Shown here piece by piece: positions 6,916 to 58,861 of a stretch of 64,000 nucleotides of DNA. The notes under the pieces were generated by a model, which searched no databases, had not been told where the DNA came from, and worked only from the letters and a program-made list of their open reading frames with translations. Positions within the stretch are counted from its first letter, which is position 1, and each line of letters starts with the position of its first letter. A program made the translations under genes and the position numbers. This stretch comes from Dryococelus australis (taxonomy: Eukaryota > Arthropoda > Insecta > Phasmatodea > Phasmatidae). The stretch is taken from the NCBI GenBank assembly GCA_029891345.1, contig CM057002.1:21032295-21096294 (forward strand), read 5' to 3'.

Positions 6916-7169
6916 CCTGGACTTCAGCACCTGAAACTCAGTGACTATCAATGTCAACCCTACCTAACTACCACCTCTCCCGCCAATACCACAAACACCG
7001 TTCATTCCACCCATACCCGCATACTAGTCAACTCCTATGTTTAATCCGCACTATCCCACAATTTTACCGAACCTAACACAAATGTTCCTAACTGCCACAC
7101 CAGTAACAAACATGCCACGAAATTCCAGTGAACTAGCACCCACCACCAACCACAGATCGGAAACAGCAA

Positions 7170-7434
7170 GTCGGCCGATGCCCACACATTTCCAGATACT
7201 GTCACATTTTCCGGTGCACTCAATGAAGACCCAACAGTGTTTGTGCAAGACTGCACAACACGTTTACAGCAGTACCGAGTTTCCGAAGATGAGTGGCCTG
7301 GTTGTGTGGGTAAGCAACTTGAAGGCGAGGCTCGACAATGGTGGAAGTCAATATATCACTATGGCTTAACATGGACCGAGTTTCTACACTCATACCAATG
7401 CAGGTTCAGAGGCCAGGTGAAAAAACAGGGATAG
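7170..7434 (+). pseudogene. Gypsy gag domain (retrotransposon gag, PF03732-like)
   Basis: One frame reads through TFSGALNEDPTVFVQDC, then GCVGKQLEGEARQWW and TWTEFLHSYQCRF. This follows the retrotransposon gag pattern: F-x-G-x-x-x-x-D-P-x-x-F, later L-x-G-x-A-x-x-W, then a tW-x-e-F segment and F. It encodes part of the capsid-like structural protein. The frame closes at 7434, and the downstream zinc knuckle is degenerate (CIRYGHPGC near 7551). Confidence 0.75.
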
Positions 7435-7697
7435 TATAGACAGCAATGTGAACACCAATGAGAAGCCGACAACAGTCACTACCGCACAAGGCAGAGTGTT
7501 CAAGCAACAAATATGAGTGGTTTTCAAGGTGGCAATCGGTTTGTCAAGTTGTATAAGATATGGCCACCCAGGATGCCATGCCGTTGCTGCAAAATGGACA
7601 CCTACCACTGGCACAATGCCTACCCAGACAACCCCCATAACAACAGACATCCCGACGCAACCGACAATGACTAGGGAAATAGGAAATAGGGGTAAAG

Positions 7698-8057
7698 GTG
7701 CCAGACGTGTCGTTTACCCCTGTTCCGCAGTACAAGCCAGCGTTGACACCTGAGCAAACCCTGGTACAAAAGATCACTAGTAATGGTGCAAAATCTATAA
7801 GGGTATTTGTTTATGTCAATAATCTTCCATATCACACACTAATAGATACTGCGGCATATCATAATTTCTGTCAACCTCGATTTGTGCATGAAAGTGATGT
7901 AATGCTAACGCAGCATATTCTTCAACTTGAAAATTGTCAACATGTAAATTCAGCATTAGGACAGTTTGCAGTAACCAACAGAATTCGTTATTTGAAGACG
8001 ATATCCACAGTAGTAACAACAGAGATTACCAAGGATGCTATAGTGGGAGTACCATGA
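7698..8057 (+). pseudogene. Gypsy retropepsin region
   Basis: This 119-codon frame contains RVFVYVNNLPYHTLIDTAAYHNF (shown here in part as LIDTAAYHNF). It fits the retroviral-type aspartic protease start with the active-site triad D-T-G changed to D-T-A. The catalytic Asp is kept but the conserved Gly is lost, so activity is unlikely. The C-terminal flap and GxxxIG region are not convincing. Confidence 0.65.
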
Positions 8058-13590: not shown

Positions 13591-14374
13591 ACAGAACCCA
13601 AACCAACATAACCACGCAAAAATAAAACTGGTTGGAATGCCAATCTAGCTATACTATCCTACATCGATAGTTATGCCCAAACCATTTTTTCCAAAACTGC
13701 AAAACATAACGTTCATGTGGTTTGTGTTGAGTTATTCTTCTATAATCTTTGTTTGGTAAATATACATATGGCCTTCTGTAACATTTTGTATTTTCAGCCA
13801 TGAATGGTGAAATATTGGTTTTGGTATCACATGTGTTTTCGTTACAACCACAATTTACAGTCGCGCCAATGTAATTCCAGTTTAAAAGTACGAGTAACTG
13901 TCATTTAAAATGTGAAACAAATCAAAATTTAAAATGAAAATATGGAAATAAATAAAAACACATGTACCGAAATGAATTGATCGAATAAAAATGATTATTA
14001 ATGGAATCCCTATATGTATTTAAATAACTTTGTATAAATAAATATATGTGTTCAAATTAAGTTTATAATTTTTTTTTGCATATATACATGTGTGTGTACT
14101 CAAAAAAATAAACTTAAATTTCCCGCCATTAACTATATTTGAATTCTCCTCTGCTGGTCTTCTTGATCTTTAGTTTATGATCAGTCGCAAAGCGCTACGA
14201 TCGCAGTACGTCCTCGGTCAACGATATTAACTTCGGAGATACCGATCTATTAACACCTAATGTATCTATCAAAAAAGTTTTTGTTGTGGTTATCTTGGGG
14301 TAAACTGTTTGGAAGTCGTCTCATGTAAAAAGGAAAAATTATATTATTGACTGGAGAAAGTTTCTGCAGCAGTA
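13591..14374 (+). promoter_or_regulatory. upstream region of the mitoregulin-like ORF
   Basis: AT-rich sequence gives way at about 14180-14330 to a more balanced, CpG-containing stretch (TCGCAAAGCGCTACGATCGC and onward). This is the likely promoter and 5' UTR of the ORF that starts at 14375. An ATCGATAG sequence (DRE-like) occurs near 13664. The bases before the ATG read TTCTGCAGCAGTA, so a 3' splice site at CTGCAG is possible and the 5' UTR may be spliced. Confidence 0.4.
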
Positions 14375-14560
14375 ATGACGATACAAATCGAGTCGTATAC
14401 AATTAAGACTATTGTGATTATCACTTTTATTGCGGGAGCTGCTGTTGGGTATAAGTTGAAGGAGTGGAGAATCTGGTGGGCGAAAAGGAGGAGAGACCAT
14501 TTCGCTGATAAACTCGTAGACGCCCAAAAGACCTTAGAGGTTTTGTCAAAGTCGCCATAA
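14375..14560 (+). CDS. Mtln: mitoregulin-like mitochondrial membrane microprotein
   Basis: This complete ORF encodes 61 residues with ATG and TAA present. Residues 10-27 form one hydrophobic segment (TIVIITFIAGAAVGY region) that keeps the F-x2-G-x3-G spacing of vertebrate mitoregulin. After it comes a Trp- and Arg-rich basic stretch (residues 31-40, with KRRR at 37-40), then ADKLVDAQKTLEVL, which aligns without gaps to the D-K-L-x3-Q-K-x-L C-terminus of MTLN (56 residues in human). Mitoregulin sits in mitochondrial membranes and is reported to support respiratory supercomplexes and lipid metabolism. That function is inherited by analogy. Start choice: it is the only ATG that gives this whole protein. 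It is flanked by repeats on both sides and shows no damage. The assignment rests on recall of the vertebrate protein, with no search run. Confidence 0.75.
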   Translation: MTIQIESYTIKTIVIITFIAGAAVGYKLKEWRIWWAKRRRDHFADKLVDAQKTLEVLSKSP

Positions 14561-15387
14561 TAGAGTAAGATAATGTTTCATTTTGATTCGACACTGTGAC
14601 GTCTCAGATCTGCTACTTCCGGGAAGTCTCTCGCAAAAAATGGGCAATTGTTAAGAATCACAGCTTTTCCAAATGAAAATCTTTTAGAATGGTATGTATC
14701 ATCATCACTAATCACACTTAAAAGTCTAATTTAATGGGGGGCACCACGATATTCGTTGTTCCTATGAAACACAATAGTGGAGCCATGAAGATAAGGGAAT
14801 TGTGGGGTAAAACACTTAAGAATTATGTAAACTATAGTGTCAATCGGGAGAGTGATTCACCAGAAATACATAATATTCCAACACTGTTTGATACTTGTGT
14901 TGATTACCTGTATAACCTCACCACCGTGGCATAATTTTACCCTGTAAATTACATTTTATACATTAACGATTTGTTTCCAAAGGTATTCTCACAATTTAAT
15001 ACAAATTTGCGACCCAGTATAACTGTATCCGACGTTAATTATACATGTTTTATTGCATAAACCCAGCCATCTTTATAACCCTCCACTCTTATCTAATTAC
15101 ATTTTTTTTTTACAGTAAACTAAGTGGAGCCCCTCCATAATTCCTATCAATTGTGATTAGTAATAATCATATCTAACATACTCGTGTATTATTTTCCTGA
15201 TTTTCGAAAAAGGCCATGTTCAGGATTACCATGTAAAATAGGATATACACATTGTGTCCGGTACGAGTGATGAGGGATTGGTTTTAACGTAATTATTTCA
15301 ACTTTCGATGTAGTTTTTACATTTATTATAGCATATGAATTGTATGTGTGTGTGTTAATTGCATGGTAAAATGAGTGAAAAATATGT
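14561..15387. other. downstream flank of the mitoregulin-like ORF
   Basis: This probably includes the 3' UTR. A TGACGTC element (14597-14603) and a perfect palindrome ACTTCCGGGAAGT (14615-14627, STAT- and ETS-like) lie 37-67 bp after the stop. A 66-codon frame at 14734-14934 is open but has no recognised similarity. No clear AATAAA was found close to the ORF. From about 15160 the sequence resembles half-units of the palindromic cluster that follows. Confidence 0.4.
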
Positions 15388-15696
15388 ACATAATCGTAAT
15401 ATTTAATGCTGTAAATGCATTAAATTACAAAAAAAAAAGACCTAATTGAACTATACCTAACTTGACAATTTTACCACCACAAGTTACAAATATGGTAGTG
15501 GGTAGGGCATGAACATCAGGGAAGTGAGTGAAAAATGTGCGTTTTCACAAAATTTTACCCCACAAATTGCATCCAGTTGATAGCCCTCCCCAGTATCGAA
15601 TAATGTAACTTGTATTGTTAATATTGTCAATTTAGGTATTGTTCAGTTACATTTTTAAGCAATTAAAGTTTTTGTGATAAAATATTACGATTATAT
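15388..15696. repeat. palindromic element unit A
   Basis: The left arm begins ATAATCGTAATATTT and the right arm ends AATATTACGATTATA, exact inverse ends. Inside, GACCTAATTGAAC and CAATTTAGGTATTG, CCACAAGTTACAAAT and ATGTAACTTGTATTG, and TAGTGGGTAGGGC and GATAGCCCTCC pair across the centre. It is non-coding and MITE-like. Its right end is also the left end of unit C. Confidence 0.75.
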
Positions 15697-16134
15697 CGGG
15701 AATATCACGAAGCAAAACGACCTAACCAAACAATACCTAAAATCATGATATTATCAATACACACACACATCCAAATGTTACTGTGATAACGTACGATGTT
15801 CAAGCATAGTCTCCTTGCAGGGAAAAATATTGTACAAGCGTAGCCAAATATCATGCACAGAGCCAGATTCCCAGCACCAGCAGGGGAGTAAATCCCCAAA
15901 ACAGTGATTCAGCCTCGTCGACTTTCTTCTCTAGGTAGTGACCACCAAAGAGGTCATGCATCAGCGATGCTTGGAGTTTCCCCAGAAATGACTTTCAAGA
16001 TTAGCCCATGAACATTGAAATATTGCGTGAGTCTCTCTTGTGTGTATTGGTAATATTGTGAATTTCTGTATTGTTTGGTTAGGTAGTTTTCCAATTTAAT
16101 TTATTTTCGTGCTATTTGTAATATTATCGTAATA
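15683..16134. repeat. palindromic element unit C
   Basis: The left arm starts ATTACGATTATATCGGG and contains GACCTAACCAAACAATACC, then ATTATCAATACACACAC. The right arm has TGTGTGTATTGGTAATATTG, then GTATTGTTTGGTTAGGTAG, and ends ATTATCGTAAT. It shares its left terminal repeat with unit A and its right terminal repeat with unit B, so the three units interlock. Confidence 0.7.
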
Positions 16135-35392: not shown

Positions 35393-36780
35393 ATGGATGG
35401 TAGATATATGCTGCAACTGCCATTCAAACAAAATCGACCTGAGTTAGGAGAGTTGCTACAACAGGCACGTTTAGGGTATGAACATCTGGAGAAGAAATTC
35501 GCTAAATCACCGGAGCTTGCAACTGCATACCACCAGTTTCTCCAGGAATATGAAGAACTGGGCCACATGACACGCATCTCATCTCAGTTGCTTGGCTCTC
35601 TGTTGGCGAGCTGAGTAACAGTTGTTTGGGTGCATCAGAAATCTCAGAGGTAGCATGTGTTATTCCTCACCATGCTATAATTAAAGAGGCTAGTTCAACC
35701 ACTAAGGTGCGTGTTGTTTTTGATGGCTCATCAACGTCAAATGATGTGCTCCACACTGGGCAGAAATTGCAGGAGGACATCTGTGAGATTATTGTGAACT
35801 TCCATACACTACAAATATGGATACATTATGATGAATGAAAATATCAGTGTATTCTCTGGCGACCTTCAGCTGAAGAAGATATGCAGCTATATAGATTCAA
35901 CACAGTTACGTATGGACAGGCATCATCTTATCAAGCACTGAGAACATTAAGGCAAGTTAGCTACTGATGAAGCTCAAAACTTTCCACACGAGACGTTTTT
36001 GTTAATGACGTGGTTACGGGGGCTGACTCGTTGGAAGAAGCAATCAACCTGAAATAGGAACTTGTGTCACTGCTTCAACGAGGAGGATTTGAGCTTCGAA
36101 TATGGTCCTCCAGCAGCAACACTCTACTTGAAGTGCCTACATCACAGCAAGAAGTTTTGAAGAGCCTTTATCAAGAGACCAGTCCAGCTATCAAAGTACT
36201 TGGTGTATACTAGTGTCCAGAGACTGATGATTTTACATATGTCAATGTACCCCAATTGTCAATAACATAATTGGGTATCTTGTCAACTATTGCTCGACTT
36301 TACGACCCATGTGGGTGGGTAGCCCCAGTTGTGTGGGGAAAAACCTTGTTGCAGACACTGTGGATGCTGGGGTTAGAGTGGCCTTAACATGTTCCTATAG
36401 ATACCGTATTGTTGAGCAGTGGTTACATTTCAAGAAGACACTAGGTGCTCTGGCCAAGGTGAGAATCCCACGACACATTGAATGGACTAGTGCCTGCAGT
36501 ATTGAAATTCATGGGTTCTGCGAGCTTTTGAGAAGACGAATGCTGCTGTGATTTATGCTCGCATTGTCAACATCATTGGAATTGTTTCAACTTGCCTGAT
36601 AACAGCAAAATCAAAGGTTGCACCATTGAAGACATTATCAATTCCGAGGCTTGAGTTATCGGGTGCTTTGCTTCTCTCAAGATTGTGGCAATGGGTGAGC
36701 AAAATGTTCAGCGAAAGGGTTCATCCCTTCAATGTGTACATGTGATCAGATTCTTCCACTGTCCTGTCATGGCTCCGGTC
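35393..36780 (+). pseudogene. BEL/Pao reverse transcriptase and RNase H, inactive
   Basis: The segment 35393-35590 gives the BEL RT lead-in (RPELGELLQQARLGYEHLEK and TAYHQFLQEYEELGHM). Positions 35626-35838 give VIPHHAIIKE and TTKVRVVFDGS. A fragment at 35880-35960 retains YRFNTVTYGQASSYQALRT. Near 35998 the catalytic Y-V-D-D box reads FVNDVVTGA, so one Asp is Asn. About 36240-36350 gives ARLYDPCGWVAPV, and 36600-36730 gives APLKTLSIPRLELSGALLL, the A17/RNase H junction typical of the family. Part of RT between 35838 and 35870 is deleted. Confidence 0.8.
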
Positions 36781-47738: not shown

Positions 47739-47911
47739 CTAACTGGACTTGGGGTCGCAGTGGTGGCCCAGGCCCTGGAACTTTGGGCGCACAACGGCAG
47801 ACACCGGCTCCTGGATGCCATTACCACTAGCACCCAAGCATGTGCCTGGCTCCCAGCCCATGTTTCGCAGCATCTGGTTCCCGATGTTCGTCTCCGGGAT
47901 GGGGCCCGCCT
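47739..47911 (-). CDS. R3H/G-patch protein, last exon (G-patch domain)
   Basis: The exon runs from an acceptor CCCCAAACAG|AG at 47911 to a TAG at 47739-47741. It contributes two bases, 56 codons and the stop. The peptide includes AGPIPETNIGNQMLRNMGWE, then GNGIQEPVSAVVRPK and FQGLG, a full G-patch of about 45 residues. G-patch domains bind and activate DEAH-box RNA helicases. One hallmark glycine is changed: PGTCLG where G-x-G-L-G is expected. The exon joins the 53419-53558 exon in phase (G|AG gives Glu). The wording around the domain is closest to GPATCH2-like proteins, while the R3H partner domain recalls Sqs1/NKRF, so I leave the symbol open. Confidence 0.85.
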
Positions 47912-48321
47912 CTGTTTGGGGCAAACAACTGGCTGTCACTGAGGGGTCACATTTGCCGAGGCCACAGTATTGTAATGTGTTATGGGGTAACAGTAAAAAG
48001 TACCTGACTGTAGCAAACTTTTCTGCACTAAAATGGTCTCGAATTCTAAGTTGGTCATATAGTTTATAATGGTGCATACACATTAGTAACCATAACATGT
48101 ATCAGGTTACAGTGTTACAGCCCAGCGTTCACAACCTGATGCTTCCTGTAATGTATCAACAAAAACGTAACATGGCCAAGACGAGTGGCCCGTCTCAATG
48201 CAGACCAATATCCCAGTTTATTTTAACGTAAAATTGTTATTACAATACTCCACGTCTAAGGAAATATATTCTAGCAGCCTCCTGCCTCGAACACTTATTC
48301 TACATAACATGACTGTTTCTA

Positions 48322-58310: not shown

Positions 58311-58537
58311 AGCGTATTGGTATCGGGATTACGGTAGTGGTATAGGAAAACATGGTATCGGAACAACTCCAAAGGACAGTAAAGGATATAGGGGAAGATG
58401 CAGAGCTGAGAGGAAGAAATGAAATGTGTTCAGAAAGGGGGGTTAACAGAATGACAAGAATAAGATGGTAGCAATTCACAAAGATGAATTGGCCACATGG
58501 AAGAGAGTGGGAGTGGGGGTGGCAATGGTGAAAGTAG

Positions 58538-58861
58538 TGGTTGTGGTGGCGAGGTGGTTGTGGAGAGGTGGTGGTGGTGGTGGTGGTGGTGGTGATGTGG
58601 TGGTTGTGGAGAGGTGGTGGTTGTGGAGAGGTGGTGGTAGTGGTGGTGAGGTGGTGGTTGTGGTGAGGTGGTGGTTGTGGTGAAGTGGTGGTTGTGGTGG
58701 TGAGCTGATGGTTGTGGTGTTGAGCTGGTGGTTGTGGTGGTGAGCTGATGGTTGTGGTATTGAGCTGGTGGTTGTGGTGATGAGCTGGTGGTTGTGGTGG
58801 TGAAGTGGTGGTTGTGGTGATGGTGGTGAGGTGGTTGTGGCAGGGGGGTGGTTGTGGTGGC
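58538..58861. repeat. GGT/GTT-rich minisatellite with 20 bp period
   Basis: The segment 58681-58820 is a 20 bp tandem array (TGAGCTGRTGGTTGTGGTGN, seven copies). The flanks are irregular GGT/GTTGTGG repeats. It lies in an intron about 45 bp downstream of the donor of the 58906-59028 exon, so the transcript carries CCACAACCA repeats there. The long His/Thr/Pro-rich minus-strand frames are products of the repeat. Confidence 0.85.

What the first reader, a model, noticed from the sequence alone, without database searches (positions are those of the whole stretch)
14375..14560. Invertebrate mitoregulin-like microprotein gene
A 61-codon ORF aligns ungapped with the C-terminal 46 residues of vertebrate mitoregulin as I remember it. 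F-x2-G-x3-G in the membrane helix, the Arg-rich linker and the D-K-L-x3-Q-K-x-L tail all match. Mitoregulin was described as vertebrate-conserved and was long annotated as non-coding RNA, so an intact copy in a transposon-rich invertebrate genome would deepen its age and would be missed by most gene finders.
Basis: partly seen in the sequence, partly recalled or inferred. Interest (0 to 1): 0.85.

Follow-up and report, generated by a model that had tools for sequence, protein, structure and literature searches.

The report
Possible insect relative of mitoregulin
A large, repeat-rich insect genome contains one intact 61-residue reading frame that looks like a distant relative of mitoregulin, a tiny mitochondrial membrane protein so far credited to vertebrates, but the match is borderline and has not been seen in a second invertebrate.

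Summary
The ORF is real and intact: 14375-14560 (+), 61 aa. Pfam's only match above its cut-off is Mitoregulin, PF22002: E 3.6e-6, 27.2 bits against a cut-off of 27, profile positions 6-55 of 56 without gap. In a six-frame scan of the whole 3.4-Gb genome this ORF is the best PF22002 match, but weakly so (E 0.028, 26.1 bits, under the cut-off; next 21.6 bits with an internal stop). It is the genome's only match by protein search. Profile comparison with 16 vertebrate sequences gives P 2.5e-7.

The match is uneven. F-x2-G-x3-G and D-K-L-x3-Q-K-x-L are present, but in the block that vertebrates keep almost unchanged (W25-Q43) it is identical at 1 of 12 invariant columns. Three protein searches returned no named invertebrate. 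No second species, transcript or synteny test was possible. The host is an insect by its cox1 copies, probably Dryococelus australis (inferred). [quoted passage not shown]

Verdict: a credible, unproven mitoregulin-like microprotein gene, homology about 0.6, not filed as a proven orthologue.

The parts
14375..14560 (+). Candidate mitoregulin-like microprotein ORF, 61 aa plus TAA stop, no internal stop
14402..14452 (+). Probable membrane-spanning stretch (residues 10-26, bounds chosen by eye) with F-x2-G-x3-G
   Evidence: Kyte-Doolittle maximum over 15 residues 2.23, starting at residue 10, against 2.17 for human mitoregulin typed from recall; F18 and G21 align with columns that are F and G in 81 of 81 rows (G24 was part of the filter that chose the rows), and F17, G20, G24 are invariant in the 16 rows
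14453..14506 (+). Basic, aromatic juxtamembrane stretch (residues 27-44); alike in composition, but not in residues, to the vertebrate WQANRxRRRyLDWRKkRLQ block
14507..14539 (+). C-terminal helix motif D-K-L-V-D-A-Q-K-T-L-E (residues 45-55), the best-matching part of the tail
14371..14372 (+). Possible splice acceptor AG just before the ATG (unproven)
   Evidence: 26 of 210 ATG ORFs of 40 aa or more have an acceptor and a donor at least as good, so this is no evidence by itself
14565..14570 (+). Possible splice donor GTAAGA just after the stop (unproven)
   Evidence: same caveat

Best explanation
The ORF is a single-copy nuclear gene for a divergent insect homologue of mitoregulin. The protein would be a 61-residue, single-pass mitochondrial membrane protein. 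A short N-terminus lies in the intermembrane space. A membrane helix with a Gly-x3-Gly face allows packing or self-association. A basic, aromatic juxtamembrane stretch anchors it to anionic lipid and sets its orientation. An amphipathic C-terminal helix with the D-K-L-x3-Q-K-x-L motif docks to partner proteins, and so tunes respiration and fatty-acid use. Shown here: the intact frame, the ungapped profile similarity over about 50 residues, a predicted continuous helix (residues 2-59) and a single match in the genome. Inferred: homology, mitochondrial location, orientation, partners and function, all carried over from the vertebrate literature.
For: PF22002 E 3.6e-6, 27.2 bits, cut-off 27. Best PF22002 match in 3.415 Gb, the only one of the 9 listed that covers nearly the whole profile (6-55 of 56). 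hhalign probability 93.4, P 2.5e-7, 49 columns without gap. Block-preserving shuffles reach the score 1 of 5000 times. Mitoregulin profiles hit no PDB chain above 17.2 bits or over more than about 30 of 56 positions, in 177,635 sequences. As a yardstick, STMP1/DUF4535, which I recall as broadly conserved in animals, is found in this genome at E 4.6e-4, though only by one exon. Charge resembles human MTLN (+11/-6 against +12/-5). AlphaFold2 predicts one helix, mean pLDDT 85.4.
Against: In the genome-wide scan the score is 26.1, under the cut-off, and E is 0.028; the same family also rang, under the cut-off, in 1 of 14 control genomes (Escherichia coli). Only 1 of 12 vertebrate-invariant residues in W25-Q43 is kept, although a shark sequence is 70-77% identical to 15 other vertebrates. 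None of three searches of 5.8 billion proteins returned a named invertebrate (1 candidate, none scored; 93 hits, all PF22002, 75 named and all of these vertebrate, 18 unnamed; 42 candidates, none scored). The finding was picked by a reader looking for resemblances, a selection effect that a per-protein E-value does not cover. No transcript or second species was available.
Confidence: 0.58

Rival explanations
1. A real, expressed small membrane protein that is not a mitoregulin homologue: a membrane helix with small residues followed by a basic amphipathic helix, which resembles mitoregulin by convergence or common architecture.
For: The matching parts (G-x3-G helix; K/Q/L coil) are common in small membrane proteins (general knowledge); vertebrate MTLN itself matches LapA_dom weakly; the vertebrate-specific block is missing; with the TM kept and the tail shuffled, 21 of 5000 reach the score.
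Against: No other Pfam family fits (next DUF6105, E 0.077); the two motifs lie at the vertebrate spacing with no gap; block-preserving shuffles reach the score only 1 of 5000 times.
Confidence: 0.22
2. A chance ORF in intergenic, repeat-rich DNA that is not a gene.
For: 71 ATG ORFs of 61 aa or more lie in this window alone. Whole-genome E is 0.028, and the finding was selected by a reader. The ORF alone matches no protein in the database. The flanking splice-like sites are not unusual (26 of 210).
Against: It is the top of a 3.4-Gb search, with the start and the stop both within a few residues of the family's ends. It is the only protein match in the genome. The one repeat found nearby starts about 210 bp beyond the stop; that comparison covered only the window and the loci held, not the genome.
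Confidence: 0.18
3. A copy of another known mitochondrial microprotein, such as STMP1.
For: Similar layout: G-x3-G helix and a C-terminal K-L-x3-(Q/K)-K-x-L stretch (from a recalled human STMP1 sequence).
Against: The ORF does not list DUF4535 at E 10, and human STMP1 does not list MTLN at E 10; HMMER's filters drop most matches above about 0.1. The genome's STMP1-type matches are on C14 (over the cut-off) and C3 (E 0.19, under it).
Confidence: 0.02

Closest known systems
Mitoregulin (MTLN, LINC00116, MOXI, MPM, LEMP; Pfam PF22002)
   Same: Size (61 against 56 aa), one N-terminal membrane helix with F-x2-G-x3-G, basic stretch after it, D-K-L-x3-Q-K-x-L-(D/E) tail, ungapped profile alignment, charge and hydropathy.
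   Different: Insect host; 21-30% identity to 16 vertebrate members; keeps 1 of 12 invariant residues of the W25-Q43 block; a few residues longer at the C-terminus.
STMP1 (DUF4535, PF15054)
   Same: Short single-pass mitochondrial protein with Gly-rich helix and basic coiled tail (recalled).
   Different: Different spacing and no profile match listed in either direction at E 10; its matches in this genome are elsewhere.
LapA_dom (PF06305) and DUF6105 (PF19600)
   Same: Generic membrane helix plus coil; they show the background of weak cross-family matches.
   Different: All matches below their cut-offs; no reason to think they are homologous.

Membership tests
Mitoregulin (PF22002) | Reaches Pfam's curated cut-off of 27 bits | tested here: inconclusive
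   27.2 bits as a protein, 26.1 in the whole-genome scan
Mitoregulin (PF22002) | About 56 aa with one N-terminal membrane helix and a basic C-terminal half | tested here: met
   61 aa, hydropathy and charge, predicted helix
Mitoregulin (PF22002) | F-x2-G-x3-G in the membrane helix | tested here: met
   F18, G21, G25 align with F17, G20, G24, invariant in 16 of 16 rows of A2. In one search F17 and G20 are invariant in 81 of 81 rows, but those rows were chosen for having G24-W25; 12 of 93 rows failed that filter (C-terminal extensions, truncations or substitutions)
Mitoregulin (PF22002) | C-terminal D-K-L-x3-Q-K-x-L-(D/E) | tested here: met
   in vertebrates themselves D is kept in 70 of 81 and K in 63 of 81 rows
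Mitoregulin (PF22002) | W-Q-A-N-R-x-R-R-R-(Y/F)-L-D-W-R-K-x-R-L-Q block conserved from shark to mammal | tested here: not met
   1 of 12 invariant columns identical. Whether it defines the family outside vertebrates is unknown, because all 75 named members found are vertebrate
Mitoregulin (PF22002) | Mitochondrial membrane location | not testable with these tools
   needs an experiment
Mitoregulin (PF22002) | Conserved gene neighbourhood (near NPHP1 and BUB1 in mammals, recalled) | not tested
   The genome search for PF08311 and PF18122 did not complete
Mitoregulin (PF22002) | Frame under purifying selection in related species | not testable with these tools
STMP1 (PF15054) | Match to the DUF4535 profile | tested here: not met
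   no match listed at E 10; the family's matches are elsewhere in the genome

The most novel reading that the evidence does not exclude
Mitoregulin is not a vertebrate invention. It dates at least to the ancestor of insects and vertebrates, survives as an unannotated 61-aa gene in a stick insect, and was missed because only the membrane helix and the terminal D-K-L-x3-Q-K-x-L helix are ancient. The W-Q / R-R-R / D-W-R block would be a vertebrate addition, probably tied to a vertebrate-specific partner.
Probability: 0.5. Interest if true: 0.65.

Novelty: new variant of a known kind. Interest (0 to 1): 0.45.

Why it matters
[quoted passage not shown] passages, and the first of six parts), and a 2023 survey places its origin within vertebrate evolution (PMC10032668; passages). 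An insect homologue would push the gene back to early bilaterians and open insect genetics for a protein whose partners and even membrane are disputed. It would also separate the ancient core (Gly-rich helix, terminal helix) from a vertebrate addition, which says where to look for the conserved function. If wrong, it is a useful example of how easily small membrane proteins look alike.

Tried and rejected
Protein searches: ORF alone, ORF plus human mitoregulin, ORF plus hypothetical tail intermediates. The tool needs shared exact 5-residue words, so relatives at moderate identity can be missed; absence is weak evidence. Viral-contig scan: 20 stretches matched a pattern, none a relative. NCBIfam: nothing for the ORF or two vertebrate members. 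PDB with the ORF: one match, E 2.6.

A first vertebrate HMM from all 93 hits was badly aligned (98 positions for a 56-residue protein; ORF 17.7 bits; shuffles reaching it 0, 1, 0 and 37 of 5000). It was rebuilt from 81 of 93 rows, kept if the last 56 residues have G-W at positions 24-25, and scored on the same shuffles. Pairwise BLOSUM62 against human mitoregulin: score 63 with two cancelling gaps, best of 2177 six-frame segments of 20 aa or more in the window; 1 of 5000 full shuffles and 5 of 5000 block shuffles reach it.

A splice-framed exon was considered. The sites exist but are as good for 26 of 210 ORFs, so they are not used as evidence. The AlphaFold model is one helix, so a fold search would say little and was not run. 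Of the 42 stop-to-stop ORFs of 100 aa or more, 19 were scanned with Pfam, so neighbouring genes may have been missed. Synteny and DNA copy-number searches of the whole genome were asked repeatedly and never answered. Papers not held. Literature searches that could have shown an invertebrate mitoregulin listed none that I recognised by title or abstract, but each shows only the top of its list (for, 30 of 111 papers), and one search was uninformative.

Full report
WHAT IS THERE. An ORF of 61 residues plus stop runs from 14375 to 14560 on the + strand. The surrounding DNA is A+T-rich (35% GC at 14001-16000) and the window holds weak retroelement-like matches, all under their cut-offs. The window is G000:C10:21032295-21096294 of a 3,415,067,245-base assembly in 646 contigs.

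HOST. A search for COX1 gave 102 matches on contigs numbered between C1 and C17, the full-length ones carrying ten or more TGA codons, as expected of nuclear copies of mitochondrial DNA. The best one, read with the invertebrate mitochondrial code, is a long insect-type COX1 stretch of 447 residues without a stop ("insect-type" is my own judgement, no database named it). The published scaffold count is 1,879 and the length 3,421,391,311, so the assembly version differs and the species is inferred. In that paper the predicted proteins miss 40.1% of conserved insect genes, so a missing annotation would not be surprising.

SIMILARITY TO MITOREGULIN. Pfam gives PF22002 (Mitoregulin) at E 3.6e-6 and 27.2 bits (cut-off 27), residues 7-56 on profile 6-55 of 56; the only other family listed is DUF6105 at E 0.077. 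A search of the whole genome with PF22002 puts this ORF first among 73 scored candidates: E 0.028, 26.1 bits, under the cut-off. The next eight run from 21.6 down to 18.1 bits, five of them with a stop inside and all of them shorter. Their E-values (0.72, 1.08, 1.62, 2.7 and so on) rise about as expected by chance, so the E of 0.028 looks well calibrated. In the same call the family rang in 1 of 14 control genomes (Escherichia coli), under the cut-off. Profile comparison with 16 vertebrate sequences gives probability 93.4 and P 2.5e-7 over 49 ungapped columns. A plain pairwise alignment to the human protein scores 63 and uses two 3-residue gaps that cancel out.

CONTROLS. With an HMM from 81 of 93 database sequences, the ORF scores 19.9 bits. 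Of 5000 shuffles each, 0 (all residues), 1 (within four blocks), 1 (membrane half only) and 21 (tail only) reach it. Mitoregulin profiles match PDB sequences only over about 30 of 56 positions or fewer, at most 17.2 bits, among 177,635 sequences. STMP1, a microprotein family that I recall as widely conserved, reaches E 4.6e-4 in this genome by a single exon (31.9 bits, cut-off 28.3), so short families give modest E-values here even when real. Against this, three vertebrate mitoregulin sequences match LapA_dom at E 4.6e-5 to 1.8e-3, under its cut-off, which warns that such proteins attract false matches.

WHERE IT MATCHES AND WHERE NOT. Of 24 columns invariant in 16 vertebrates, 9 are identical here: the start Met, F18, G21, G25, R32, L47, Q51, K52 and L54. 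In the W25-Q43 block, the best-conserved part of vertebrate mitoregulin, 1 of 12 is kept; outside it, 8 of 12. In 21 of 52 columns the ORF's residue occurs in at least one of the 81 rows. So the two ends of the helix agree and the middle agrees in character only (basic, aromatic).

NO RELATIVES FOUND. The ORF alone drew one candidate and no hit in 5.8 billion proteins. With human mitoregulin added, 93 hits of 95 candidates appeared, all PF22002; 75 are named, all of these vertebrate, and 18 are unnamed. With hypothetical tail intermediates, 42 candidates and no hit. The method needs shared exact words, so this is weak evidence of absence. The ORF is the only match in its genome by protein search. 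A DNA repeat shared with one other held locus starts about 210 bp downstream of the stop, outside the ORF; a genome-wide DNA search did not complete.

HOW IT WOULD WORK. AlphaFold2 predicts a continuous helix, residues 2-59, mean pLDDT 85.4, pTM 0.42. Hydropathy and charge resemble human mitoregulin. [quoted passage not shown] the review describes an N-terminus facing the intermembrane space, disputes between inner and outer membrane, self-oligomerisation, and partners such as CYB5R3, HADHA/B and cardiolipin (PMC11920140, first of six parts read). The kept G-x3-G face would serve packing or self-association, and the kept terminal helix would serve docking. All of this is inference.

LITERATURE. 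[quoted passage not shown] PMC10032668 places it in vertebrate evolution (passages); PMC7214441 reports 71% identity from mammals to zebrafish, strongest in the C-terminus (passages); PMC11899852 says fish to humans (passages). Searches listed no invertebrate member in the titles and abstracts shown, which are only the top of each list; two of the original papers that I asked for are not held.

CONCLUSION. A credible but unproven mitoregulin-like gene in an insect. Probability of homology about 0.58, of an unrelated small membrane protein 0.22, of a chance ORF 0.18. A second species or a transcript would settle it.

Noticed in passing
window 47742-48101 (-): G-patch domain exon (PF01585, E 6.6e-14), by recalled resemblance the last exon of a GPATCH2-like gene; one unusual residue (C in the recalled G-x-G-L-G motif).
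   Followed up: partly
G000, contigs numbered C1 to C17: Heavy load of nuclear cox1 copies: 102 matches to PF00115, several full length with TGA where the mitochondrial code reads Trp (a lower bound, 96 of 381 candidates scored).
   Followed up: partly
window 7132-8057 and 36231-36551 (+): Weak retroelement-like matches: Arc_capsid_dom E 0.0012, RVP_2 E 0.057, Pao peptidase E 0.011, all below their cut-offs.
   Followed up: no
window 14772-14812 and 14850-14923; L014 633-748: An interspersed repeat (80-83% identity) shared by this locus and the STMP1 locus; the 66-aa ORF 14734-14934 overlaps it and may be repeat-derived.
   Followed up: partly
L014 (G000:C14:2463208-2463279) and L015 (G000:C3:173673698-173673796): STMP1-type (DUF4535) exon in the same genome on C14, E 4.6e-4, apparently split by an intron after the membrane helix; a second match on C3 is under the cut-off.
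   Followed up: partly
window 58537-58860: GGT-rich tandem repeat giving long His/Thr/Pro-rich open frames on the - strand.
   Followed up: no
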